From positions 1-64,000 of the forward strand of contig JAUXMV010000016.1 of NCBI GenBank assembly GCA_030683155.1: 64,000 nucleotides of DNA, written 5' to 3'. The first letter of the stretch is position 1. Each line of letters starts with the position of its first letter. This DNA comes from Bacteroidales bacterium. GTDB lineage: Bacteria > Bacteroidota > Bacteroidia > Bacteroidales > F082. The notes below the pieces were generated by a model. It did no database searches. It was given only the letters and a program-made list of their open reading frames with translations, and was not told the origin of the DNA. Both the position numbers and the translations under genes were made by a program. This document shows, one piece after another, positions 17,153 to 52,955 of the stretch.

Positions 17153-17509
17153 TTATGCAAGGTCCTCAAAAGAGACTTCTTCATTGTTTTCTGAAATTTC
17201 TTCAGGACTTTTCGTTTCATCATCATCTTCAAAATCAACAGGGATTTCTCCTGTTTCAATAAAACGGATAGATTCTGTAAGTCCTTTCATAAACTTTTCA
17301 AAATCTTCACCATAAAGGAAAAGTTTGTGTTTCTCATAAAAAAACTTACCCTGATCATTACTGAACCTGCGCTTGCTTTCCGTAATTGTGAGGTATTTCT
17401 CGTCGCTGCGGGTTTGTTTCACATCAAAAAAGTAAGTGCGTTTGCCTGCCCTCACTGCGCGGGAAAAAATCCCTTCCCTTCTTTCATTGTTTTCGCTCTC
17501 TTCCATCAT
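17153..17509 (-). CDS. DUF3276 (PUR-alpha-like) nucleic-acid-binding protein
   Basis: A PUR-repeat-like DUF3276 protein: GIFSRAVRAGKRTYFFDVKQ, YLTITESKRRF, KHKLFLYGEDFEKFMKGL, then an acidic C-terminal tail (FEDDDETKSPEEISEN). Related Bacteroidota and spirochaete PUR proteins bind single-stranded DNA/RNA. A TTG at 17530 would add seven residues; the ATG at 17509 is preferred (118 residues) because a TAnnTTTG box lies at 17550-17543, so initiation of transcription falls close to the TTG. It is monocistronic with its own terminator. Confidence 0.88.
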   Translation of the reverse strand: MMEESENNERREGIFSRAVRAGKRTYFFDVKQTRSDEKYLTITESKRRFSNDQGKFFYEKHKLFLYGEDFEKFMKGLTESIRFIETGEIPVDFEDDDETKSPEEISENNEEVSFEDLA

Positions 17510-17530
17510 CAAGTCATTTTGATTCTTCAA

Positions 17531-18047
17531 TAAATCTTACAACAAAAGTAAAAAAAGTTTTAAACGAACTGCCATCAAATAAAACTCAAAAAAAATCCAG
17601 TATAGTTTTATCCAATTAAAAACAAGACAAAAGCTTCGCAAATGCAACTATATTAATGATTTATGAAAATATTACAAGATCAAACAAAAATAAATTTTCA
17701 ATGCCAACACCATACATAGCGCTTAATATTCAATCAGTAAAACTGAAATCAAAAGCAATAAGGCAGGTAAAAAATATACAAATAGCACATGTTAGCTAAC
17801 TTCCATAAGTGAGCTCAACTATTGATTTCGCAGAACTTTTAAGTTTAGAGAATGATTTCAACTATTATGACGGACTTAAGGTTTTCCTCCTTCTGTAATG
17901 GGTGGAAAATTATTTGAAAAAAAAAAAGATTGTTCAACAAAAGGGAAAAACTTGACTGAATAGAAAAAAAATAATCTTTCAAAAAAAGTTTGCATTAGTA
18001 ATATAAAGTAGCTTATATTTGTAATATTAACTTTAAAGCTTAAGGTA
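17531..18047. other. 517-bp AT-rich gap at the left edge of the ATPase island
   Basis: It holds the DUF3276 -7 box CAAAAGTA (17543-17550; TACTTTTG on the minus strand) and, at the right end, the promoter of the first ATPase gene. Between them I see only A/T-rich sequence with stop codons in all frames and no structured RNA. Confidence 0.6.
17989..18021 (+). promoter_or_regulatory. Promoter of ATPase gene 1 with overlapping inverted repeat
   Basis: TTTG (17989-17992), 21-base spacer, TATATTTG (18014-18021): a full Bacteroidota -33/-7 pair. The spacer and -7 box carry an inverted repeat AATATAA (18000-18006) / TTATATT (18013-18019). The 20 bases from 17988 recur with one mismatch at 20887-20906. 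Confidence 0.6.
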
Positions 18048-19265
18048 ATGCTACTTAAACAAGATATTGAACTTGCGATAGTTGCTCAGCAAGAACAACT
18101 TACAACAAAAAGCGGCACTATAAACCGCAAATTTCTTGATGATTTTAAAGTTGTGGGTAATCACATCGAAGTAATATCCGGTGTAAGAAGGTGTGGAAAA
18201 AGCACTTTGATGAAAAAAATCATTCAAAGTCTTTATCAAAAAACCGCCTGGTTCAATTTTGAAGATTCACGCGTACATGGCTTTGAAGTCAATGATTTTA
18301 GTAAATTGGACGAATTGATGGGTGGGGGTATTGAGGCCTATTTCTTTGATGAAATACAGAATGTACCTTCATGGGAAATTTTTGTTCGTCAGCTGCATGA
18401 CCGCAATGATAAGGTTTATGTGACAGGTTCAAATGCTGCATTGCTCAGCAAGGAACTCGGCACAAGGCTTACCGGCAGGCATATACGACATGAGCTTTTT
18501 CCATTTAACTATACCGAGTTTCTCAATTACCGGAATTATGAACCTAACCCATCATCATTCAATCATTATATTCAATTGGGAGGATTTCCTGAATATCTGG
18601 ATACAGAAACCCCTGAAATATTACAAAATTTATTGAAAGACATCGTTTTCAGGGATATTGCTGTAAGATATGGGATAAGAAATACCGGAAGTCTTATGGA
18701 TATGACCTTGTATCTTATTTCAAATATAGGAAAGGAATTTTCCTACAATACGCTACGAAAGACCTTCTCAATTGGATCAGCAAATACTGTCTCAGATTAT
18801 TTGACATGGCTAGGCGACAGCTATTTGCTGTTTTTTTTGCCACGGTTCAGTTGGTCGGCAAAGAGTATTGCGATGAATCCACGCAAAGTATTTTCCATTG
18901 ACACTGGTCTGGTCAATGCCAATACTTTAAGTTTTAGCAAAGACAGGGGAAGATTGATAGAAAATGCAGTGTATTTATTTTTGCGACAGCATAGGACTGA
19001 TTTATATTATTTCCGTGAAAACCACGAGTGTGATTTTGTTGTGTTCAAAGGTCGTGAATGCAAAATGTTGATTCAGGTTTGCGAACAACTGAATCATGAT
19101 AACCTTAAAAGAGAAACACAAGGACTGGAGGAGGCAATGAACTTCTTTGGATTGAAAGAAGGATATATTTTAACACTCGACCAGTTTGATGAGCTGCGCA
19201 TACAAAATAACCATGTACATATTCTACCAGTTTATCAATTTTTTATATCTGATTTGCTTGATTAA
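18048..19265 (+). CDS. AAA_14/DUF4143 ATPase, island copy 1
   Basis: 405 residues. AAA+ core with Walker A SGVRRCGKST (about 44-53), Walker B AYFFDEIQNV, sensor motif VYVTGSNAALLS and the arginine-bearing ELGTRLTGR, then the C-terminal DUF4143 domain, which belongs to the PD-(D/E)XK fold group. The nuclease-like site reads ECDFVVF then LIQVCEQ: the acidic Asp is present but the ExK pair is replaced by Q-V-C, so catalysis is doubtful. COG1373 proteins like this are abundant in Bacteroidota and have no agreed function. It is transcribed alone from its own promoter. Confidence 0.88.
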   Translation: MLLKQDIELAIVAQQEQLTTKSGTINRKFLDDFKVVGNHIEVISGVRRCGKSTLMKKIIQSLYQKTAWFNFEDSRVHGFEVNDFSKLDELMGGGIEAYFFDEIQNVPSWEIFVRQLHDRNDKVYVTGSNAALLSKELGTRLTGRHIRHELFPFNYTEFLNYRNYEPNPSSFNHYIQLGGFPEYLDTETPEILQNLLKDIVFRDIAVRYGIRNTGSLMDMTLYLISNIGKEFSYNTLRKTFSIGSANTVSDYLTWLGDSYLLFFLPRFSWSAKSIAMNPRKVFSIDTGLVNANTLSFSKDRGRLIENAVYLFLRQHRTDLYYFRENHECDFVVFKGRECKMLIQVCEQLNHDNLKRETQGLEEAMNFFGLKEGYILTLDQFDELRIQNNHVHILPVYQFFISDLLD

Positions 19266-19413
19266 TTTCAGCGAGCAAATTATATGAAATGTGTTTTAAA
19301 AACTGTCGCCTTTGTGTTCAACGCACTAATCGGGTCTATAAAATATATCTACTCTTGTAAGTTCAAAGTACTGGCTTTTAAAAAACAACACATAAAGTGA
19401 AAAAACACTGAAT

Positions 19414-19463
19414 GATTATTGGACAAATTCCATTTTATTAATTAAATTTGTCCGCTAATAATC
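19414..19463 (+). promoter_or_regulatory. Promoter of ATPase gene 2 inside a long inverted repeat
   Basis: TTG (19419-19421), 21-base spacer, TAAATTTG (19443-19450). The whole promoter lies within an interrupted inverted repeat: GATTATTGGACAAATT (19414-19429) against AAATTTGTCC (19444-19453) plus TAATAATC (19456-19463), two bases bulged. This is where a repressor dimer would bind. Confidence 0.6.
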
Positions 19464-19469
19464 TAAGTC

Positions 19470-20669
19470 ATGATGATTCAAAGAGATATAGCGTCTAAAA
19501 TTCTTGAATTAGCACAGAAATTTCCGGTGATTACCCTTACAGGACCGCGTCAATCAGGCAAAACAACACTTTTGCGCCATCTTTTCCCTGAGAAAAGGTA
19601 TATCTCGCTGGAGGACCTGGATACGCGCGAATATGCTACAACAGACCCTCGTGCTTTTCTAGACTCCTTACCTGATGGCGCAATTCTGGATGAAATTCAG
19701 CGTGTGCCCGGGCTCTTTTCTTATTTGCAGGGCATTGTTGATAAACATGGTATTGCAGGAGAGTTTATTCTTTCAGGTTCACAAAATTTTTTATTACTGG
19801 AAAGTGTCAGTCAAACGCTTGCCGGACGTGCAGCAGTATTGAAACTCCTGCCTTTAAGCAACAAAGAGCTTGCAACCACGCCTTTTTTTGAACAAAGTTT
19901 GGAAGAAAGAATCTATGGGGGATTTTACCCCCGCATCTATGACAAACAAATTTTACCTGCCGACTTTTATACAGCCTATACGCAAACCTATGTAGAGCGA
20001 GACATCCGTCAAATGAAGAATATACACGATTTGAGCCTGTTTACCCGCTTTTTGAAATTGTGTGCTGCCCGTATTGGGCAACTACTCAACCTTTCTTCTC
20101 TTGCCAACGATTGTGGCATCTCTCATTTTACTGCACAATCATGGCTGTCGCTGCTACAAACCGGTTTTGTTGTGTACCTGCTGCAACCTCATTATGTCAA
20201 TTTCACCAAACGATTGACAAAAATGCCCAAACTTTACTTTTATGATACTGGTCTTGCTTGTCATTTACTGAACCTTACCGAAAGCAGTCAGTTGCAATCG
20301 CATTATATGCGCGGAAGTTTATTCGAAAACCTGATGATCATAGAAATTGTAAAGCATTATGCAAATTTAGGCCTGGAAGCTCCTGTATTCTTTTGGAGGG
20401 ATAAAACCGGAAATGAAATTGACTGTCTCATAGAAGCGCCCCAAGGCATGCATCTGATTGAAATGAAATCGGCGCAGACCTATCATTCCGATTTCGCCAA
20501 AAACATCAACTATTACGTAAAACTGAACGCAGGAAAATACAAGCTCAACCTTGTCACCATTTACACCGGAAATGTAAAACAGAAGCGTGCCAATATGCAA
20601 TTGATACCCTGGCAGCAAACCGACTTCAGTTCATTGCTTCATCCCGATAAATTCATAGAAACAATTTAA
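19470..20669 (+). CDS. AAA_14/DUF4143 ATPase, island copy 2 (nuclease-like site intact)
   Basis: 399 residues and a different subfamily from its neighbours. Walker A LTGPRQSGKTT (about 23-33), Walker B GAILDEIQRVP, sensor FILSGSQNFLLL, QTLAGRAAVL, then DUF4143 with GNEIDCLIE followed by LIEMKSA: the D...ExK nuclease-like triad is complete here, unlike the other three copies. It starts at either of two adjacent ATGs (19470, 19473). It is monocistronic, 204 bases after copy 1. Whether it cuts DNA is unknown; many DUF4143 proteins keep this motif. Confidence 0.9.
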   Translation: MMIQRDIASKILELAQKFPVITLTGPRQSGKTTLLRHLFPEKRYISLEDLDTREYATTDPRAFLDSLPDGAILDEIQRVPGLFSYLQGIVDKHGIAGEFILSGSQNFLLLESVSQTLAGRAAVLKLLPLSNKELATTPFFEQSLEERIYGGFYPRIYDKQILPADFYTAYTQTYVERDIRQMKNIHDLSLFTRFLKLCAARIGQLLNLSSLANDCGISHFTAQSWLSLLQTGFVVYLLQPHYVNFTKRLTKMPKLYFYDTGLACHLLNLTESSQLQSHYMRGSLFENLMIIEIVKHYANLGLEAPVFFWRDKTGNEIDCLIEAPQGMHLIEMKSAQTYHSDFAKNINYYVKLNAGKYKLNLVTIYTGNVKQKRANMQLIPWQQTDFSSLLHPDKFIETI

Positions 20670-20886
20670 AAATTTCATAAAATATCTCAACCAATACCCC
20701 CCAACAATGAGTTTATCTATATGATTTGCATGGAAGAAGCGTGAACCTCCCCGCCCCTAGTAATCAGGAGGGCCAAGTGGAAATTGATTGTTGTTACTTA
20801 TCTGGAGGAATGTATTTTATCCATGTTTATTCCGATGGCATTCTTACCGTAAAGAAATTGAGTTTAATTCCTTGATAAAACTATGA

Positions 20887-20906
20887 GTTTGCATTACTAA
20901 TATAAA
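20887..20906 (+). repeat. Second copy of the ATPase-1 promoter segment
   Basis: GTTTGCATTACTAATATAAA matches 17988-18007 at 19 of 20 positions. No -7 box follows at promoter spacing and no gene follows on this strand, so it looks like a remnant or a recombination junction. Confidence 0.5.
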
Positions 20907-20912
20907 CTGTTA

Positions 20913-21022
20913 CGTATATGAAACGTTTGGCATTTCGAAGCACTTTCCTGTCAAGTTACAAGTGCCTTTGATACGAGCCAGAATGCTCGATAGCCCACTG
21001 ACTGCCAAATGTTTTATATACG
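20913..21022. other. Foldable ~110-bp element with 20-bp terminal helix and two internal hairpins
   Basis: Arms GTATATGAAACGTTTGGCA (20914-20932) and TGCCAAATGTTTTATATAC (21003-21021) pair over 19 positions, 17 Watson-Crick plus two that are G-T (G-U in plus-strand RNA); C20913-G21022 adds one more pair. Inside are GCACTT/AAGTGC (20940-20965) and CGAGC/GCTCG (20974-20989). It could be a structured RNA, a MITE with long terminal repeats, or an attC-like site: it starts 17 bases past the stop of ATPase gene 3. No known family is matched. Confidence 0.45.
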
Positions 21023-21038
21023 ATGTTATAGCCTTTGG

Positions 21039-22283
21039 TTATTCTTGTTCTTCATCTGTGTCCAGTAGCCAGTTAAAAACATTAAGATGCTTAATTCCAC
21101 TTCTATTTTGAGTAAAGGAGTCTGATGTGAGTAAAAATTTAGGGTAATTGTCGTTGATTTTTTCTAACGCATCAAACTCTCGTTTAATTGTGCTTTCACT
21201 CGCCATTTGCCAAGCAAGCTGATAATATTCAATGTCGCCTGTCTTGGTTTTGCAAACAAAGTCAACTTCGCTATTTCGTGAAGTACCTGTCCAAATTTTG
21301 TTGCCTCTTCTAAGCAGTTCCAGATAAACTACATTTTCTAATATATGCCCTCTGTCTGTAGTACGTTCTTTTCCCACCAAAATATTGAGCAATCCAGTGT
21401 CCACTAAATAGTATTTTTCTTGAGTAGCCAATTGCTTTTTGCCTTTCAAATCGAAGCGGTTTACTTTGTAAAATATAAAACTTGCCACTAAATATTCTAA
21501 ATATTTCTCAACGGTGGTATTGTGTGTGTTTTGTCCGTCTTGTTTTAACATTTTTGCAATATTTCCGGGCGATAGTGGGTTCCCAATGTTGGAAGCTACA
21601 AATTTTGTAATATTGCCAAAAGCCCGCTTGTCGTTTATTTGGTGACGTTGTGTAATATCTTTTTCTACAATAGTGGCGTAAATTGCTTCTAGGTACTCAT
21701 ATATCTTATCGAATCCGCCCTCTCGCAGTTCAACGCCTTTGGGTAATGATGTTTCATTTACATAATCAAAAAAGAGAGCTTCATAATTGAGGTATCTGTT
21801 TGATATGTCAATTTTGCGAGCAGTTAAGTACTCTTTGAATGAGAAAGGCAATATAGAAATTTCAATATACCGACCACTTAAAAGTGTCGCTAATTCACCT
21901 GACAGTAAAAAAGCGTTTGAGCCTGTGATGTAAACATCTATATTCGGTTTTACGAATAACCCATCCACCAAAAGTTCAAATTCGTTTACATTTTGCACCT
22001 CGTCTAAAAAAACATAGCAGGGCTTTGATAAATCTAACTGACTGATGATATGTGCATACAAAGAATCTAAGTCGTTAAGAAATTTGCGCAGTTCAAACTC
22101 TTCAAAGTTTAAAAACACTATTTGCTTGTCTTTTACCCCCATTTGCAATAGTGTTTGTCTATATAGTTCAAACAAGGTGCTTTTGCCGCTTCTGCGCAAA
22201 CCACTTACCACTTTTATCAGGTCTTTGTCTTTATAAGCCAATAATTTGCTTATGTATTCTTTGCGATTTGTATAATTACTCAT
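21039..22283 (-). CDS. AAA_14/DUF4143 ATPase, island copy 3
   Basis: 414 residues. Walker A SGLRRSGKST (about 27-36), Walker B CYVFLDEVQNV, sensor VYITGSNAFLLSGEL, TLLSGRYIEI, and a C-terminal DUF4143 part with SEVDFVCK followed by YYQLAWQM; the ExK pair is replaced by Q-L-A. The YYQLAW type is a distinct subgroup of these ATPases. It is the only island ATPase on the minus strand. A TATATTTG box ends just 4 bases before the ATG, so the transcript would be nearly leaderless, unless another promoter is used. Confidence 0.88.
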   Translation of the reverse strand: MSNYTNRKEYISKLLAYKDKDLIKVVSGLRRSGKSTLFELYRQTLLQMGVKDKQIVFLNFEEFELRKFLNDLDSLYAHIISQLDLSKPCYVFLDEVQNVNEFELLVDGLFVKPNIDVYITGSNAFLLSGELATLLSGRYIEISILPFSFKEYLTARKIDISNRYLNYEALFFDYVNETSLPKGVELREGGFDKIYEYLEAIYATIVEKDITQRHQINDKRAFGNITKFVASNIGNPLSPGNIAKMLKQDGQNTHNTTVEKYLEYLVASFIFYKVNRFDLKGKKQLATQEKYYLVDTGLLNILVGKERTTDRGHILENVVYLELLRRGNKIWTGTSRNSEVDFVCKTKTGDIEYYQLAWQMASESTIKREFDALEKINDNYPKFLLTSDSFTQNRSGIKHLNVFNWLLDTDEEQE

Positions 22284-22287
22284 ACTG

Positions 22288-22340
22288 CAAATATAATGAT
22301 ATAATCATTAAAACATGCATAACTTACAAGTTTTAATGAT
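22288..22340 (-). promoter_or_regulatory. Promoter region of ATPase gene 3 with inverted repeat
   Basis: TATATTTG on the minus strand (22295-22288), and upstream a perfect 11-bp inverted repeat ATCATTAAAAC (22304-22314) / GTTTTAATGAT (22330-22340) with 15 bases between. The repeat covers the -33 area. Confidence 0.5.
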
Positions 22341-22470
22341 TTGATAACTGTTCCTATTAATCATTGTATTAGTGTGTCGTATATGTTTAATTACAATAAC
22401 ACTTTATTTATGAGTCGTTTCCTAAATAGCTATCTCAAAATTCGTCAAATTGTTGAACCCGCCACGGCTA

Positions 22471-22531
22471 AGCGGCAATTGTATTGCCGCTTTCTTGAGT
22501 TTGGATTTAACTAGATAAATCCAAACTCAAG
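22471..22531. repeat. Two tandem perfect hairpins
   Basis: Hairpin 1: AGCGGCAAT (22471-22479), loop TGT, ATTGCCGCT (22483-22491). Hairpin 2: CTTGAGTTTGGATTT (22494-22508), 8-base loop, AAATCCAAACTCAAG (22517-22531). Both stems are perfect and are 2 bases apart. They are upstream of both flanking genes, so they are not 3' terminators of either; a mobile-element remnant or regulatory structure is possible. Confidence 0.65.
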
Positions 22532-22756
22532 ATGAATGAGGAAGTAAGCGTGCATAAACTGATAAAGTTTGAATAATTAAGCAGGTGATTCATGAAATTG
22601 AAGTCAGCTATTCATTCTTTTTAATTTGCTTTTGATGATTGAATCGCTGGATTTCTTGTTTTGGAAGTAAAACATAAATAACTACCATACGAAAATGAAA
22701 AACATTTTTAAAAAAATATAATTCGGTTGATTTTTTTACTACTTTAGCTCAAAAGT

Positions 22757-22772
22757 GGTAATAATTATTACC
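22757..22772 (+). promoter_or_regulatory. Perfect 16-bp palindrome before ATPase gene 4
   Basis: GGTAATAATTATTACC is a perfect palindrome ending 16 bases before the ATG at 22789. Upstream, TACTTTAG is a one-mismatch -7 box. The position fits an operator over the transcription start. Confidence 0.55.
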
Positions 22773-22788
22773 GATTAACAGATTTATC

Positions 22789-24099
22789 ATGAAAGAACTT
22801 ATAAAAGAGCTGATACTTGACTGGCAATCAACACAATGGTTTTCTGGAACTTCAAGGGAAACACAGCCGGCACATGTTCCTAACAAGGCAACAATCATTA
22901 TTGGCGTGCGGCGTGCCGGCAAATCTACCTTAATGAATCAGATTGCCGAAAGACATCTTCAATCGGGTGTTTTGAAAGAAAATATCCTGTATATAAATTT
23001 CTTTGACGACAGGCTATCTTCATTGAAAAACCTGGGTCCTGATTTGATTATGCAAGCTTATTACGGACTTTATCCACAAAAAAAATCCACAGAAACTGTC
23101 TATTGCTTTTTTGATGAAATTCAGGAGTTGCCCCAATGGGAATCTTTTATCGACAGGTTAATGCGAACAGAAGTGGTGGAAATATACCTCACAGGATCTT
23201 CTGCTCAAATGTTGTCAAGTGACATTGGCACACAAATGCGCGGCAGGGCATTATCTTGGGAGTTGTTTCCGTTTTCCTTTAAGGAGTTCACCTCCCGGGT
23301 CGGAATTTTAAACTATCCTCCTTTCAACACCAAAGACAGACTCCTGTTGGAAAACAAGTTTCAGGAATACTGGCACAGTGGCGGTTTTCCAGAGGTTTAT
23401 GGACTGGATAAAATGCTTCGGGTAAAAATACATCAGGAATATTTTAACTCTATCATGTTTCGCGATTTGGTTGAAAGGCACGATGTTTCACATCCCAAAG
23501 CCATGATGGAGCTTGCACGTTATCTTTTGGAAAATATTGCTTCCCTATATTCTATTAACAATCTTACAGGTTTTTTAAAATCAATGGGCTTCGGTCTGTC
23601 CAAAACCTTAGTTGCTGAATATCTGAACTGGTTTGAGGATGCCTATTTTCTTTTTACCGTACGTTTGTTTGATGCCTCCTATCGCAGGTCGAATGCAAAC
23701 CCTAAGAAAATTTACTGCGTTGACCATGCTTTTGTTCGTTCAGTCACCTCAGGAATCCTTGTAAACAGTGGTCATTTATTGGAAAACATTGTGTTTATGC
23801 AATTAAGGCGCCATTCAAATGAGGTTTACTATTACAAAACAAATAATGGCCGTGAAATCGATTTTGTGCAAAAAGATCAATATGGTCGTATCAACCTTAT
23901 ACAAGTGTGTGAAGCAATTGTGAATCCTGCAACCCGTGATCGTGAACTATCAGCTTTAGAAATAGCAATGGAAGAACTAAAAGTTGACATGAGCTATCTG
24001 GTAACGCTAAATGAAACGGAAATTGTTAAGCTAAAGAATGGTATGGTTGAGATTATTCCTTTATGGAAATTCCTTCTTGTGATGGATGAAAAAATTTGA
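22789..24099 (+). CDS. AAA_14/DUF4143 ATPase, island copy 4
   Basis: 436 residues, the longest of the four. Walker A IGVRRAGKST (about 38-47), Walker B VYCFFDEIQEL, sensor IYLTGSSAQMLS, DIGTQMRGRAL, then DUF4143 with REIDFVQK followed by LIQVCEA. As in copy 1 the ExK pair has become Q-V-C; copies 1 and 4 share this and are probably the closest pair. It is transcribed alone from the palindrome-bearing promoter region. Confidence 0.88.
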   Translation: MKELIKELILDWQSTQWFSGTSRETQPAHVPNKATIIIGVRRAGKSTLMNQIAERHLQSGVLKENILYINFFDDRLSSLKNLGPDLIMQAYYGLYPQKKSTETVYCFFDEIQELPQWESFIDRLMRTEVVEIYLTGSSAQMLSSDIGTQMRGRALSWELFPFSFKEFTSRVGILNYPPFNTKDRLLLENKFQEYWHSGGFPEVYGLDKMLRVKIHQEYFNSIMFRDLVERHDVSHPKAMMELARYLLENIASLYSINNLTGFLKSMGFGLSKTLVAEYLNWFEDAYFLFTVRLFDASYRRSNANPKKIYCVDHAFVRSVTSGILVNSGHLLENIVFMQLRRHSNEVYYYKTNNGREIDFVQKDQYGRINLIQVCEAIVNPATRDRELSALEIAMEELKVDMSYLVTLNETEIVKLKNGMVEIIPLWKFLLVMDEKI

Positions 24100-24233
24100 T
24101 TTATTATTCGATTATATAGCTTCTGATTGATATTATGTACCAATCCTGCGTTATTAAACCAATTGAAATATGCATGTAATTTGACCTTGCTTGAAATGAA
24201 ACAAAGTAACATTAGTTTTGATAAAACAGTGCC

Positions 24234-24311
24234 ATGAAAATAAAAATCGCTAACCTGCTTTTCCTGCTTTTATTAAAAATCAGCAACTTCGCATTCTCCA
24301 CCAGGGTATAA
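24234..24311 (+). pseudogene. Possible remnant: isolated signal-peptide-like ORF (25 aa)
   Basis: ATG followed by a Lys-rich start and a hydrophobic core (IANLLFLLLLKISNFAF) then stop. It resembles a signal peptide whose mature part is gone. Chance is possible. Confidence 0.2.
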
Positions 24312-24394
24312 ATTTTTACCAATTTTAAGAATCAATTTATTACTTTCCTCGTTAAGCTTCAAGTTGAAACGCACTTTCTTTACGAAAATATCTG

Positions 24395-24402
24395 TATTTT
24401 TG
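24395..24402 (+). promoter_or_regulatory. -7 box of the E2 gene
   Basis: TATTTTTG fits TAnnTTTG, 73 bases before the ATG at 24476. No good -33 partner at normal spacing. Confidence 0.35.
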
Positions 24403-24475
24403 CAGCCTAAATTGAACAAAAAAGGTCATACAACCATTACATTTGTATTCGAAAAATAAAAATAATTGAAATAAT

Positions 24476-25783
24476 ATGGCAACATTTGAAATTATAATGC
24501 CAAAATTAGGCGAAAGTGTTATCGAAGCTACCATCACCAAATGGCTTAAAGCACCCGGTGATGTTATCAATGAAGATGATGCCCTCGTTGAAATTGCCAC
24601 TGATAAAGTGGATTCAGAAATCCCTTCCCCTGTTGAAGGAAAACTCATAAAACTCCTTTTCAACGAAGGAGATGTTGTAGCTGTAGGCACGCCGATTGCG
24701 GTCATTTCTCTTGATGGAGATGATGCCGTGGCCGAAACAGCTGTCGAATCAACTAAATATGAGCCTATTGCGACTGAAATCGCAACGCCAAGTGTAAATG
24801 AAAACATTGAAACCGTCGCAAATGAAAGTGGCAGCGGAAAATTTTATTCCCCACTTGTGAAGAGCATTGCCAAAGAAGAAAATATTTCGCAGAAGGAACT
24901 CGACAGCATTCAAGGCAGTGGAAAAGAAGGCCGCGTGACCAAAGATGATGTGATGACATTTTTGAAAACCCGCAGCACCCAACCCACGGCTATCCCTGAA
25001 GCAAAAGCACCGGAAGCAGCAACTCCAAAAGCTGCGGCACCACGTATTGAAGCACCAAAAGTCACAACAGAAAGTGGCGATCAGATTGTTGAAATGGACC
25101 GTATGCGCAGGCTCATTGCCGACCATATGGTGATGTCGAAACATGTTTCACCGCACGTGACATCCTTTATTGATGTAGATGTTACCAATATCGTGAACTG
25201 GAGAAATAAGGTTAAAGACAGTTTCCAGAAACGCGAAGGAGAAAAAATCACCTTTACCCCAATTTTCTTCGAAGCTGCTGCAAAAGCATTGAAAGATTTT
25301 CCGCAGGTGAATGCATCTGTTGATGGCTACAATATTATTCTCAGAAAGAACATTAATATAGGTATGGCCACTGCACTTCCAAATGGAAATCTTATTGTGC
25401 CTGTGATCAAAAACGTGGATGAGAAGAACCTTTTGGGCATTACCAAATCGGTGAATGATCTTGCAAAAAGAGCCCGTGCCAACAAACTTCAACCGGATGA
25501 AATTCAAGGTGGCACTTTCACGATTACCAATTTTGGTTCTTTTGACAGTCTCACGGGAACACCCATCATCAATCAGCCACAGGTAGCTATCCTTGCTGTT
25601 GGCGCCATTCGCAAGCAGCCTGCAGTGCTGGAAACAGCGTTTGGAGATGTCATCGCCATTCGTCACATCATGATTCTGGCTTTGGCCTACGATCATCGGG
25701 TGGTTGACGGAGCTCTGGGCGGCATGTATCTCAAAAAGATGAAAGAAATGCTCGAAAACTTTGATCCTAACAGAGAAGTTTAA
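24476..25783 (+). CDS. 2-oxo acid dehydrogenase E2 (dihydrolipoyl acyltransferase)
   Basis: 435 residues in the standard order: lipoyl domain (1-78) with the lipoylated Lys44 in EIATDKVDSEIPSP; a linker; E1/E3-binding domain (about 120-160: YSPLVKSIAKEENI, GSGKEGRVTKDDV); an Ala/Pro-rich linker; and the acyltransferase domain with catalytic His407 and Asp411 in YDHRVVDGALGG. There is a single lipoyl domain. It is E2 of a branched-chain, pyruvate or 2-oxoglutarate complex; the substrate cannot be decided. E1 and E3 genes are not adjacent. A strong terminator follows, so it is monocistronic. Confidence 0.92.
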   Translation: MATFEIIMPKLGESVIEATITKWLKAPGDVINEDDALVEIATDKVDSEIPSPVEGKLIKLLFNEGDVVAVGTPIAVISLDGDDAVAETAVESTKYEPIATEIATPSVNENIETVANESGSGKFYSPLVKSIAKEENISQKELDSIQGSGKEGRVTKDDVMTFLKTRSTQPTAIPEAKAPEAATPKAAAPRIEAPKVTTESGDQIVEMDRMRRLIADHMVMSKHVSPHVTSFIDVDVTNIVNWRNKVKDSFQKREGEKITFTPIFFEAAAKALKDFPQVNASVDGYNIILRKNINIGMATALPNGNLIVPVIKNVDEKNLLGITKSVNDLAKRARANKLQPDEIQGGTFTITNFGSFDSLTGTPIINQPQVAILAVGAIRKQPAVLETAFGDVIAIRHIMILALAYDHRVVDGALGGMYLKKMKEMLENFDPNREV

Positions 25784-51249: not shown

Positions 51250-51837
51250 ATGAGTGCAGGCAGGTCAGTTAATTCGCAAAGTCAAACATGGGGAACACCT
51301 AAAAAGTATGTAGATGCTGTCAAGCGTTTTTTTGGCGGAAGTATTTCTTTAGACCCATGTTCAAATGAATTTTCAATTGTTAATGCTGACACAGAATATT
51401 CTTTACCTGAAAATGATGGATTAAAAGAAAGATGGGAATTTCCTACTATCTATGTCAATCCGCCTTATGGTGCAGATAGAGAAAGAGGAACTACGATCAA
51501 GAATTGGCTCGCTAAATGTGCATTAACACACAAAAAACATCAATCTGAAATTATAGCACTAGTACCTGTTGCTACAAATACTGGTCATTGGAAACAAAGT
51601 GTCTTCGGTGAAGCGTCTGCGATTTGTTTTCTATATGATACAAGATTAAGATTTTTAGAAAACGGTCTTGATGTGGGCAAAGGTGCTCCAATGGCTTGTT
51701 CTATGATATATTGGGGTAAAAATTACCAAGCATTTTATAACGAATTTATAAAATATGGTGCCGTAGTTGATATTACAAGTTTACACAACGAGCCAATTGA
51801 AAAAGAAAGGACAATGATGAAGATGCAATTTGGTTAA
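51250..51837 (+). CDS. DNA N6-adenine methyltransferase (phage Dam-like)
   Basis: 195 residues, Dam_2/PF05869 type: TWGTPKKYVDAVKRFF at the start, ISLDPCSN as the SAM-site strand, and catalytic NPPY (Asn70-Tyr73) in IYVNPPYGADRERG, then ALVPVATNTGHW. DPPY/NPPY marks amino-methyltransferases acting on adenine (or N4-cytosine). The recognition sequence is unknown; it should protect the sites cut by the neighbouring endonuclease. It converges on that gene and their stop codons share the tetramer TTAA at 51834-51837. Confidence 0.88.
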   Translation: MSAGRSVNSQSQTWGTPKKYVDAVKRFFGGSISLDPCSNEFSIVNADTEYSLPENDGLKERWEFPTIYVNPPYGADRERGTTIKNWLAKCALTHKKHQSEIIALVPVATNTGHWKQSVFGEASAICFLYDTRLRFLENGLDVGKGAPMACSMIYWGKNYQAFYNEFIKYGAVVDITSLHNEPIEKERTMMKMQFG

Positions 51838-52955
51838 CTCATTGCCCTGAGTCTTAATTTGTTTTTATTGTCTTCTGCAAAATGTTCAAACTCTACAAAT
51901 TGGTTAGAGCCCATTTCGAGAAGAACCCTGCCGTTAAATGTGTTTATAACATCATTTACAATGTTTTGTACTTTTTTCGATTTTCTATAATTAGTTTTAG
52001 TGATAATTTCTTGATAATTTTCACCAAATTCTTGGTCAAATACTTGAAATAATTTAACCAAAACGGCATCAGGGATAATTAAGTTATAGTCGTTACAAAG
52101 TCGAACCATTGAACGACTCTTACGCTCCCAATGAGATGCTTCCCCAATAACAAGGATTGATATAAATGAATCATCATCAGTTTTGTCAAATCTGCCTAAA
52201 ACCTTTTTCCTAACATCTAAAGAAACAAATGATGCTTGTTTAGCTTTTTCAGGTGTTTGAGGCCCAGGAAGAGATTCGTTAACGTGAATGGTTATTATTT
52301 TTCTTGAAGTTACAGCCTTGATTTGGACAACAATACATTTTTTTATAGAAGCAACTATGTCATTTAATGTTTCATTAGGTCCTAGAATAAATAAGGAATC
52401 ATTTACATCCTGAACTATCAGAATTTGATGTCTTTGATCACAAATAAATGAGAATGAGTCACTTTCTATAACAACACCATTACTGGCTTTTTCTAGTGAA
52501 ACCGAAATATTATTTTCATCATTCTCAACTGCAGTTAATTTCAAGGTCCATTTAAAACCAGCATTTGAAGGTGAGATTGTGAAAGAATATCCGTCAGTTA
52601 AATAAAATTCTTTCTTATTTTCTTGTAAAGATTGCCATTTTTTGAAATTTTGCTTAATGGTTTGCTCAACACCAACCTTTTTACATTCGATAATTCCAAA
52701 AAGATTTTCAGAGTTTCTTTGATGTACATTCTCTAAGTCCAGATTGTAAAAAGCAAACTCAACTTTATGTTTTGCAGTAGTAGCTCCCTCAACGCCATCT
52801 TCAATAACTAAGAAACTTGTCAATGATTCTTCTTTAGAAATCATTGCAAGGGTAATTAATTCAATAGCATCTCCAACTTTTCTTCCAATTTGGTGACCTT
52901 TTTGACCCAATCCTTGGGTAAATTTAAAAACATCCGACAAATGCATTTGACTCAT
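51834..52955 (-). CDS. Probable type II restriction endonuclease (PD-(D/E)XK-like)
   Basis: 373 residues with no sequence family recognised by eye. The N-terminal ~100 residues hold a plausible nuclease core: GDAIELITLAMI (helix acid), KHKVEFAFYNL (Glu66) and FGIIECKKVGVEQT (Glu90, Lys92), the E-x-K strand of PD-(D/E)XK enzymes. The rest is beta-rich and unassigned, ending with VNDVINTFNGRVLLEMGS. Assignment as endonuclease rests on this motif and on position between a controller gene and a methyltransferase. Its ATG overlaps the controller stop (TAATG), as in controller-endonuclease operons. A novel target specificity is possible. Confidence 0.68.
   Translation of the reverse strand: MSQMHLSDVFKFTQGLGQKGHQIGRKVGDAIELITLAMISKEESLTSFLVIEDGVEGATTAKHKVEFAFYNLDLENVHQRNSENLFGIIECKKVGVEQTIKQNFKKWQSLQENKKEFYLTDGYSFTISPSNAGFKWTLKLTAVENDENNISVSLEKASNGVVIESDSFSFICDQRHQILIVQDVNDSLFILGPNETLNDIVASIKKCIVVQIKAVTSRKIITIHVNESLPGPQTPEKAKQASFVSLDVRKKVLGRFDKTDDDSFISILVIGEASHWERKSRSMVRLCNDYNLIIPDAVLVKLFQVFDQEFGENYQEIITKTNYRKSKKVQNIVNDVINTFNGRVLLEMGSNQFVEFEHFAEDNKNKLRLRAMS

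What the first reader, a model, noticed from the sequence alone, without database searches (positions are those of the whole stretch)
17989..24099. Island of four independent AAA_14/DUF4143 ATPases, each with its own promoter palindrome
Four divergent COG1373 ATPases lie within 6.1 kb with no other genes. Each has a different inverted repeat at its promoter: AATATAA/TTATATT, GATTATT..TAATAATC with GGACAAATT, ATCATTAAAAC/GTTTTAATGAT, and GGTAATAATTATTACC. These ATPases have no agreed function. The pattern suggests separate acquisition and separate autoregulation, possibly a defence or mobile-element-related hotspot.
Basis: partly seen in the sequence, partly recalled or inferred. Interest (0 to 1): 0.55.

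Follow-up and report, generated by a model that had tools for sequence, protein, structure and literature searches.

The report
ATPases that read their own promoters
Four distantly related copies of a very common but unstudied bacterial protein sit side by side here, and comparison with relatives suggests that such a protein reads a DNA signature on its own promoter through a few amino acids that change in step with that DNA, so that each gene appears to travel as a self-controlling unit.

Summary
Observation confirmed in outline: four AAA_14+DUF4143 ORFs, 21-34% identical to each other, fill a 6.95-kb insert between DUF3276 and E2 that is missing from all 14 examined relatives keeping this junction. 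Taken alone, only the g2 and g3 repeats beat shuffles; g1 and g4 do not. 53 of 113 family genes (control 16 of 300) carry a palindrome beyond all 100 shuffles before the start codon; some have phased direct repeats instead. Gene plus operator is the conserved DNA unit, and g3 has moved between bacterial families. In the g3 superclade a scan of 392 protein windows picks residues 251-257 as the part that changes with operator sequence; AlphaFold makes 255-267 the recognition helix of a winged helix. Asn/His255 goes with T/C in both arms (16 of 16), Lys256 with CC (17 of 20 versus 0 of 36). The equivalent residue (220) is the top column in the distant g2 clade; the rule held in part in later loci. 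Best reading: the proteins bind, probably repress, their own promoters; their ATPase-winged-helix core resembles STAND switch ATPases (APAF-1, NLRs). The family is PADLOC's defence candidate PDC-S01. Binding, repression and defence remain untested.

The parts
18048..19265 (+). g1: AAA_14 + DUF4143 protein, 405 aa; C-terminal motif ends in QxC, no Lys
   Evidence: homologues of 53-60% in other families, 39% at best in the genus
17988..18021 (+). g1 operator and -7 box: half-site GTTTGCATTAGTAATATAAA (17988-18007), degenerate second half, TATATTTG (18014-18021)
   Evidence: half-site identical before homologue L088; alone not beyond shuffles (p 0.38-0.44)
19470..20669 (+). g2: AAA_14 + DUF4143 protein, 399 aa, with intact ExD...ExK (E316, D318, E331, K333)
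   Evidence: AlphaFold pLDDT 85.3, helix 219-231
19421..19453 (+). g2 operator GGACAAATT-15-AATTTGTCC overlapping -7 box TAAATTTG (19443-19450)
   Evidence: the only match without mismatch in the whole genome
21039..22283 (-). g3: AAA_14 + DUF4143 protein, 414 aa; winged helix with recognition helix 255-267; C-terminal motif ExD...QxA, no Lys
   Evidence: AlphaFold pLDDT 90.3, pTM 0.90
22304..22340 (-). g3 operator ATCATTAAAAC-15-GTTTTAATGAT, 20 bp before the start codon; -7 box TATATTTG at 22288-22295 on the minus strand
22789..24099 (+). g4: AAA_14 + DUF4143 protein, 436 aa; no homologue above 35% found outside its own genome; motif ends in QxC
22757..22772 (+). g4 palindrome GGTAATAATTATTACC
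   Evidence: not beyond shuffles (p 0.14-0.15), no close homologue to test conservation
17531..24475 (.). lineage-specific insert between DUF3276 (17153-17530, -) and E2 (24476-25783, +)

Best explanation
Each gene is a self-contained, horizontally mobile unit: one ORF plus its own operator. The protein is a STAND-like switch ATPase (AAA_14 module followed by a winged helix) with a PD-(D/E)XK-like C-terminal domain. The winged helix reads the gene's own operator, two half-sites lying on the promoter, so the protein controls, most likely represses, its own synthesis. Specificity sits in the first residues of the recognition helix and has diverged together with the operator, which would let many copies coexist in one genome without reading each other's operators. 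SHOWN by sequence analysis (g3 and g2 types): operators, their placement on the promoter, symmetric change of the arms (g3), covariation with the recognition helix, operator-plus-gene as the conserved unit, transfer between families. INFERRED: physical binding, repression rather than activation, release by an ATP-driven switch when a trigger (foreign DNA?) appears, a role in defence, and that g1 and g4 work the same way.
For: Enrichment: 53 of 113 family genes have a palindrome beyond all 100 shuffles versus 16 of 300 control genes; score >=14 in 39 versus 3; 37 of 71 in a separate genome scan; 26 of 52 in further loci found with g2 or its alignment. Placement: 49 of 51 palindromes with p<=0.05 and a TAnnTTTG box lie on the promoter stretch. 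Symmetry: 18 g3-clade operators, 91.3% of cells paired versus 34-41% when slid; 16 cells changed on both sides, 0 of 500 shuffles as high. Recognition helix: scan with the rest of the protein held constant puts windows within residues 251-257 first of 392 (partial r 0.46, n=56 of 106; 0.62 in a strict set, n=42) and windows starting at 252-254 first in three subsets, 0 of 300 maximum-statistic permutations each; top single column T256 in all three sets, H254 second. N/H255 with T/C 16 of 16, changing twice on a tree built without the winged helix, both times together; K256 with CC 17 of 20 versus 0 of 36; S254-H255 with GAC 6 of 7 versus 0 of 49. g2 clade: residue 220, the same helix position, is the top single column; later loci K with GGA 7 of 9 versus 2 of 22, p=4e-4. 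Structure. No regulon seen. Unit of homology.
Against: No binding or expression data. g1 and g4 repeats are not beyond chance alone; of the closest g1 homologues L085, L087 and L089 show no significant repeat. Of 113 genes, 52 have neither palindrome nor direct repeat at p<=0.01. In IMG/VR loci only 6 of 54 (7 with direct repeats) pass, perhaps because Firmicute operators lie further upstream. In the g2 clade the best six-residue window is 171-176; the helix windows rank 4th, 6th and 7th of 380. In the strict g3 set columns F370 and L180 score nearly as high as H254. The tree-based pair tests are too small to be significant. Two of five whole-structure measures do not stand out (two-sided pairs reached by 29 of 500 shuffles, further pair types by 321 of 500). 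Exceptions: L221 has HN but no operator found; L121 and L374 break the g2 rule; N with GCA in later loci is p=0.06. I know of no STAND winged helix that binds DNA (recalled).
Confidence: 0.78

Rival explanations
1. A separate host regulator binds these repeats; the ATPases are merely its targets.
For: Operators are typical of ordinary promoter regulation; nothing here shows which protein binds.
Against: The operator changes in step with the recognition helix of the encoded protein, more than with any other window of it; relatives with related operators occur in several phyla, so a host factor would have to be everywhere and match each variant; the perfect g2 operator occurs once in the genome, the perfect g3-type one at two ATPase genes and once inside another ORF; no shared neighbour gene in the flanks held.
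Confidence: 0.08
2. The repeats are the ends or target sites of a mobile element that the ATPase/nuclease handles (TnsC/TnsA-like or homing), not operators.
For: AAA+ plus winged helix plus PD-(D/E)XK-like domains; horizontal spread; a g1-type half-site occurs a second time at 20887-20906.
Against: The conserved unit of g3 ends around the stop codon on the other side and I saw no matching repeat there by eye; repeats sit on the promoter stretch; the Lys of the nuclease motif is missing in three of the four and, by a pattern tally, in 172 of 290 relatives.
Confidence: 0.06
3. The repeats act as RNA hairpins (attenuator or leader structure).
For: They are inverted repeats just before the start codon.
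Against: Most palindromes that have a TAnnTTTG box are centred upstream of it (42 of 51), hence mostly outside the transcript if the box is the -7 element (consensus recalled); other members use direct repeats of 22-23 or 32-33 bp period, which cannot fold so.
Confidence: 0.03
4. The proteins bind their operators as activators, or use them to park an inactive complex on DNA, rather than as repressors.
For: 18 of 51 centres lie 26-28 bp upstream of the -7 box start, near the -33 region, where an activator could also sit; MalT, a STAND activator, is among the structural matches of g2.
Against: Other operators overlap the -7 box itself, as in g2; single-gene autoactivation would be self-locking (inference).
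Confidence: 0.2

Closest known systems
PDC-S01 (PADLOC phage defence candidate; Pfam AAA_14 + DUF4143; COG1373)
   Same: All four proteins match its models over most of their length; single-gene, ATPase fused to PD-(D/E)XK superfamily, called the fourth most common defence across prokaryotes, with validation pending for most such candidates (PMC12988326, passages seen).
   Different: No description of an operator, of DNA reading by the winged helix or of autoregulation turned up in my paper searches (of the hits I opened five papers in part).
STAND ATPases: PABY2304 (2qen), SSO1545 (2fna), APAF-1, CED-4, plant NLRs
   Same: g3 residues 1-304 (ATPase plus winged helix) align with Z 17.9 (rmsd 4.0, 273 residues) to 2qen, 17.2 (rmsd 4.2, 273) to 2fna, 16.4 (rmsd 4.2, 261) to RPP1. 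That these are STAND proteins is recalled.
   Different: Here the winged helix appears to read DNA; the C-terminal domain is PD-(D/E)XK-like by motif.
STAND transcription regulators such as MalT (8bob)
   Same: Switch ATPase coupled to transcription; among the Foldseek matches of g2.
   Different: MalT activates other genes through a separate C-terminal HTH (recalled); here the winged helix next to the ATPase appears to read the protein's own promoter.
Dedicated repressors of defence islands, e.g. RptR
   Same: Represses a defence promoter through three direct repeats in it (PMC12255303, abstract seen).
   Different: RptR is a separate small protein; here regulator and effector would be one polypeptide.

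Membership tests
AAA_14 / DUF4143 (COG1373) | AAA_14 ATPase with Walker A, followed by DUF4143 | tested here: met
   all four over both Pfam cut-offs
PDC-S01 defence candidate | match to the PADLOC models | tested here: met
   E 6e-98 to 8e-146 for the best model of each protein
PDC-S01 defence candidate | protects against phage | not testable with these tools
   validation pending for most such candidates according to the passages seen
STAND ATPases | ATPase core followed by a winged helix in the STAND arrangement | tested here: met
   residues 1-304 align with 2qen, 2fna, RPP1, CED-4, APAF-1
STAND ATPases | ADP/ATP-driven switch and oligomerisation | not testable with these tools
   needs biochemistry
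PD-(D/E)XK nucleases | catalytic D ... (D/E)xK | tested here: inconclusive
   g2 has ExD...ExK, invariant in 24 g2-clade proteins; g1, g3, g4 have Q in place of E and no Lys, so for them the feature is not met
Autoregulatory DNA-binding protein | own-promoter operator conserved and covarying with the protein's recognition helix | tested here: met
   met for g3 and g2 types; inconclusive for g1, not testable for g4
Autoregulatory DNA-binding protein | physical binding and change of transcription | not testable with these tools
   needs gel shift and reporter

The most novel reading that the evidence does not exclude
One of the commonest unvalidated defence candidates in prokaryotes is a class of STAND-type switch ATPases whose winged helix is a sequence-specific DNA reader aimed at its own promoter, with a readable residue-to-base code (His/Asn255 to C/T, Lys256 to CC/GG). 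Sensor, effector and repressor are one polypeptide, and copies diversify their code so that many can coexist. This would tie the winged helix of APAF-1/NLR-type receptors to DNA-reading regulators.
Probability: 0.55. Interest if true: 0.85.

Novelty: new variant of a known kind. Interest (0 to 1): 0.72.

Why it matters
The family is very common (9,986 archaeal plus 29,494 bacterial PDC-S01 systems counted in PMC12988326) and I found no tested function for it. The code makes testable predictions for individual members: which DNA one binds, which residue to swap, and that loss of binding should change its own expression. It also suggests how a costly single-gene defence system could be kept silent without a partner gene, and why one genome can hold 17 copies.

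Tried and rejected
Considered and set aside: (1) a special ATPase hotspot at the DUF3276-E2 junction: the two other inserts there hold unrelated long ORFs. (2) Integron cassette for g3: a 117-123-bp element with inverted repeats lies just 3' of g3 and recurs 3' of other genes, but no integron integrase reached the curated cut-off in the genome (ten sub-cut-off tyrosine-recombinase matches did appear, and such matches ring in all 14 control genomes), its ends do not fit attC boxes as I recall them, and similarity to g3 homologues stops before it. Left open. (3) A partner gene: all 27 ORFs of 60 aa or more shared between the 16 g3-type loci and the window region lie inside an ATPase gene, none outside (flanks mostly 1.5 kb). 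(4) A regulon: the only further g3-type site without mismatch lies inside a 411-codon ORF that looks like an ABC permease; with up to one mismatch the reversed control pattern gives no fewer hits (8 versus 6). (5) Viral loci as a held-out set: many have Firmicute-like leaders, for which my -100 window is probably too short; 6 of 54 palindromes significant.

Dropped rows: one search used 113 of 119 genes (6 with under 100 bp upstream); one search used 71 of 80 loci; one search used 54 of 65; one search used 52 of 53. The scan used 42, 50 or 56 of 106 genes, chosen by core match, symmetry and spacing and not by the identity of the bases tested. In one search, 24 of 33 and 31 of 52 genes had a palindrome with p<=0.05 and were counted; its motif test looks at the whole left arm, so an outer GGA (g2, L018, L396) counts too. 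The set of 113 includes one false upstream region (an internal piece of g2 in L008), left in. The g2 rule was seen by eye on the first 33 genes, so only the 31 later ones test it. Related sequences are not independent; neither shuffles nor permutations remove that.

The pdb_via list says little about residues beyond 313; the C-terminal domain was not searched alone. A listing of 570 'AAA_14' papers was noise in the 30 rows shown.
Full report
What is there. The window belongs to a 4.74-Mb genome in 111 contigs, Bacteroidota-like by my reading of its genes and promoters. Four ORFs at 18048-24099 each carry AAA_14 and DUF4143 over the Pfam cut-offs, match the PADLOC models PDC-S01 at E 6e-98 or better and are 21-34% identical to one another. 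The genome has 17 DUF4143 matches, eight other genomes of the genus 2 to 12 each.

The insert. Of 30 relatives searched, 17 have a close E2. In 14 of these 17 DUF3276, ParA and ParB lie beside it; the other 3 stretches show E2 only. In 12 of the 14 the DUF3276-E2 gap is 127-717 bp; here it is 6.95 kb. The remaining two hold 2.9 and 2.2 kb with unrelated ORFs. So the block is lineage-specific. The four proteins have separate histories: g3 is 89 and 86% identical to proteins in other families, whereas E2 is 78-83% identical inside the genus; g1 reaches 53-60% in other families and only 39% in the genus; g2 has one 87% copy in the genus (L018) and otherwise 54% or less in 247 class genomes; g4 has nothing above 35% there outside its own genome.

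Repeats at promoters. For 113 family genes I took -100..+10 and compared the best palindrome with 100 dinucleotide shuffles. 53 of 113 beat all 100, against 16 of 300 other genes from the same loci; scores of 14 or more: 39 against 3; palindrome or direct repeat beyond all 100: 61 against 22. Of the three high-scoring controls at least one (L073) looks like a terminator; a fourth just at the limit (L120) is a divergent gene that shares an ATPase operator. Some relatives have direct repeats in two or three copies with a period of 22-23 or 32-33 bp, which I read as helical phasing. Of the four in the window, g3 and g2 stand alone; g1 (p 0.38-0.44) and g4 (0.14-0.15) do not. g1 gains support because its left half-site is identical before L088, a 53% identical protein in another family; other g1 homologues (L085, L087, L089) show no significant repeat.

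Where they lie. A TAnnTTTG box (Bacteroidota -7 element, recalled) ends within 25 bp of the start in 67 of 113 family genes and 31 of 300 controls; 49 of 51 palindromes with p<=0.05 and a box within 60 bp lie on the promoter stretch. This argues for a DNA operator rather than an RNA hairpin.

The unit. Among 19 distinct g3-type loci with long DNA similarity, 14 alignments end at 22340-22342, the outer edge of the operator, and one (L149) at 22359; four stop inside the gene. At the other end they begin at 21024-21069 in most cases, around the stop codon. For g2 and L018 the similarity runs from 19418, at the operator, to 20682, just after the stop codon. No gene outside the ATPase itself is shared among 16 such loci and the window. 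Gene plus operator is the conserved unit.

Symmetric change. In 18 g3-clade operators the two arms pair in 91.3% of cells, against 34-41% when slid; 16 cells change on both sides and the covariation score is 0.198, 0 of 500 shuffles as high for either; the number of two-sided pairs (6) is reached by 29 of 500 shuffles and the number of further pair types by 321.

The protein part that follows the operator. The half-site is NNNN-AAAACTT with 11 or 12 bp between cores. For each six-residue window I correlated protein distance with operator distance, holding the rest of the protein constant. Windows within residues 251-257 came first: partial r 0.62 (n=42), 0.49 (n=50), 0.46 (n=56). Windows starting at 252-254 are first in the genome contigs rows alone (n=38), the unnamed-genome rows alone (n=18) and without the closest clade (n=40); 0 of 300 maximum-statistic permutations reach the observed value in any of them. 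Among single columns T256 is first and H254 second, though F370 and L180 are close to H254 in the strict set. A weaker second peak at residues 27-36, around the Walker A motif, is not explained. Permutations do not remove relatedness; holding the rest of the protein constant does so only in part.

The code. On a tree built without the winged helix (n=56): Asn255 goes with T and His255 with C in both arms, 16 of 16 (5 and 11), two changes on supported branches, both together; Lys256 goes with CC in 17 of 20 against 0 of 36; Ser254-His255 with GAC in 6 of 7 against 0 of 49. The sign tests on independent pairs are too small to be significant. In this genome g3 (Asn, T) and its 75% paralogue L007 (His, C) differ in just this way.

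A second clade. In the distant g2 clade residue 220 is the top single column (partial r 0.58, n=23 of 33), though the helix windows rank only 4th, 6th and 7th of 380. By eye: Lys with GGA, Asn with GCA, Pro with AAA. In 31 later genes with a significant palindrome (of 52): Lys-GGA 7 of 9 against 2 of 22 (p 4e-4), Pro-TAAA 6 of 9 against 3 of 22 (p 0.007), Asn-GCA 3 of 5 against 4 of 26 (p 0.06).

Structure. AlphaFold of g3 (58 sequences) has pLDDT 90.3 and a winged helix with helices 219-231, 239-248 and 255-267 and a two-strand wing; g2 (12 sequences), pLDDT 85.3, has helix 219-231. So g3 T256 and g2 F220 are both the second residue of the recognition helix. Residues 1-304 of g3 align best with PABY2304 (Z 17.9), SSO1545 (17.2), the plant NLR RPP1 (16.4), and also with CED-4 and APAF-1; Foldseek for g2 gives PABY2304, APAF-1 and MalT among its best. 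The C-terminal domain carries ExD...ExK in g2, and Q without Lys at the second part in g1, g3, g4; a pattern tally over 290 relatives gave ExK 82, Qx[ASTC] 172, QxK 1, none 35.

No regulon seen. The g2 operator occurs without mismatch once in the genome, at g2. The g3-type operator occurs without mismatch at g3, at L007 and once inside an ABC-permease-like ORF.

Reading. The simplest account is that each protein binds its own operator through the winged helix and holds its promoter down, with the STAND-like ATPase as the switch that lets go. Binding is inferred from covariation, repression from placement, the switch from fold, and defence from the PADLOC assignment. PMC12988326 (passages) calls PDC-S01 the fourth most common defence and says validation is pending for most such candidates. 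PMC4406477 (section 7) reports a 6.6-fold rise of a gene with AAA 14 and DUF4143 motifs in Thermus with plasmid, only with Argonaute, which would fit derepression but has other explanations.

Print. 'DUF4143' occurs in 1 paper of the held library, 'COG1373' in 7, 'PDC-S01' in 3; searches combining family, STAND or autoregulation terms gave nothing on this point in the rows listed. Subscription journals are mostly outside that library, so an earlier description cannot be excluded.

Noticed in passing
20905-21027: A roughly 120-bp element with an imperfect inverted repeat lies just 3' of g3; a 91% copy and weaker copies (about 70%) occur in the same genome, three of them close behind the 3' end of other ORFs (L204, L205, L208). 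It resembles an integron attC-like site, unproven.
   Followed up: partly
20887-20906: Second copy of the g1 operator half-site (GTTTGCATTACTAATATAAA) between the 3' ends of g2 and g3, with no gene start beside it.
   Followed up: partly
L137, L132, L030, L025, L031 upstream regions: Relatives with two or three direct repeats at 22-23 bp period in place of a palindrome; by eye, in L030, L025 and L031 Pro/Asn at the recognition position again goes with TAAAA/TTGCA.
   Followed up: partly
L066:9470-11293; L074:750-2324: Two relatives carry unrelated long ORFs, secreted-looking, at the same DUF3276-E2 junction.
   Followed up: no
G202:C103, G144:C62, G192:C1, G159:C1, G001:C214, G002:C174: Pairs of AAA_14-DUF4143 genes within a few kb recur in other genomes, so clustering is not peculiar to this window.
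   Followed up: no
51250-52955: Low-GC patch (0.32-0.35) with an ORF that looks like a phage-type Dam methylase next to an ORF of unknown function, possibly a restriction pair; not tested.
   Followed up: no
L121:967 upstream: A control gene (171 aa) has a palindrome with arms of about 25 bp upstream of its start, the highest score of all controls; not explained.
   Followed up: no
g3 residues 27-36 (window 22176-22205): The Walker A region forms a weaker second peak in the operator-covariation scan; cause unknown.
   Followed up: no
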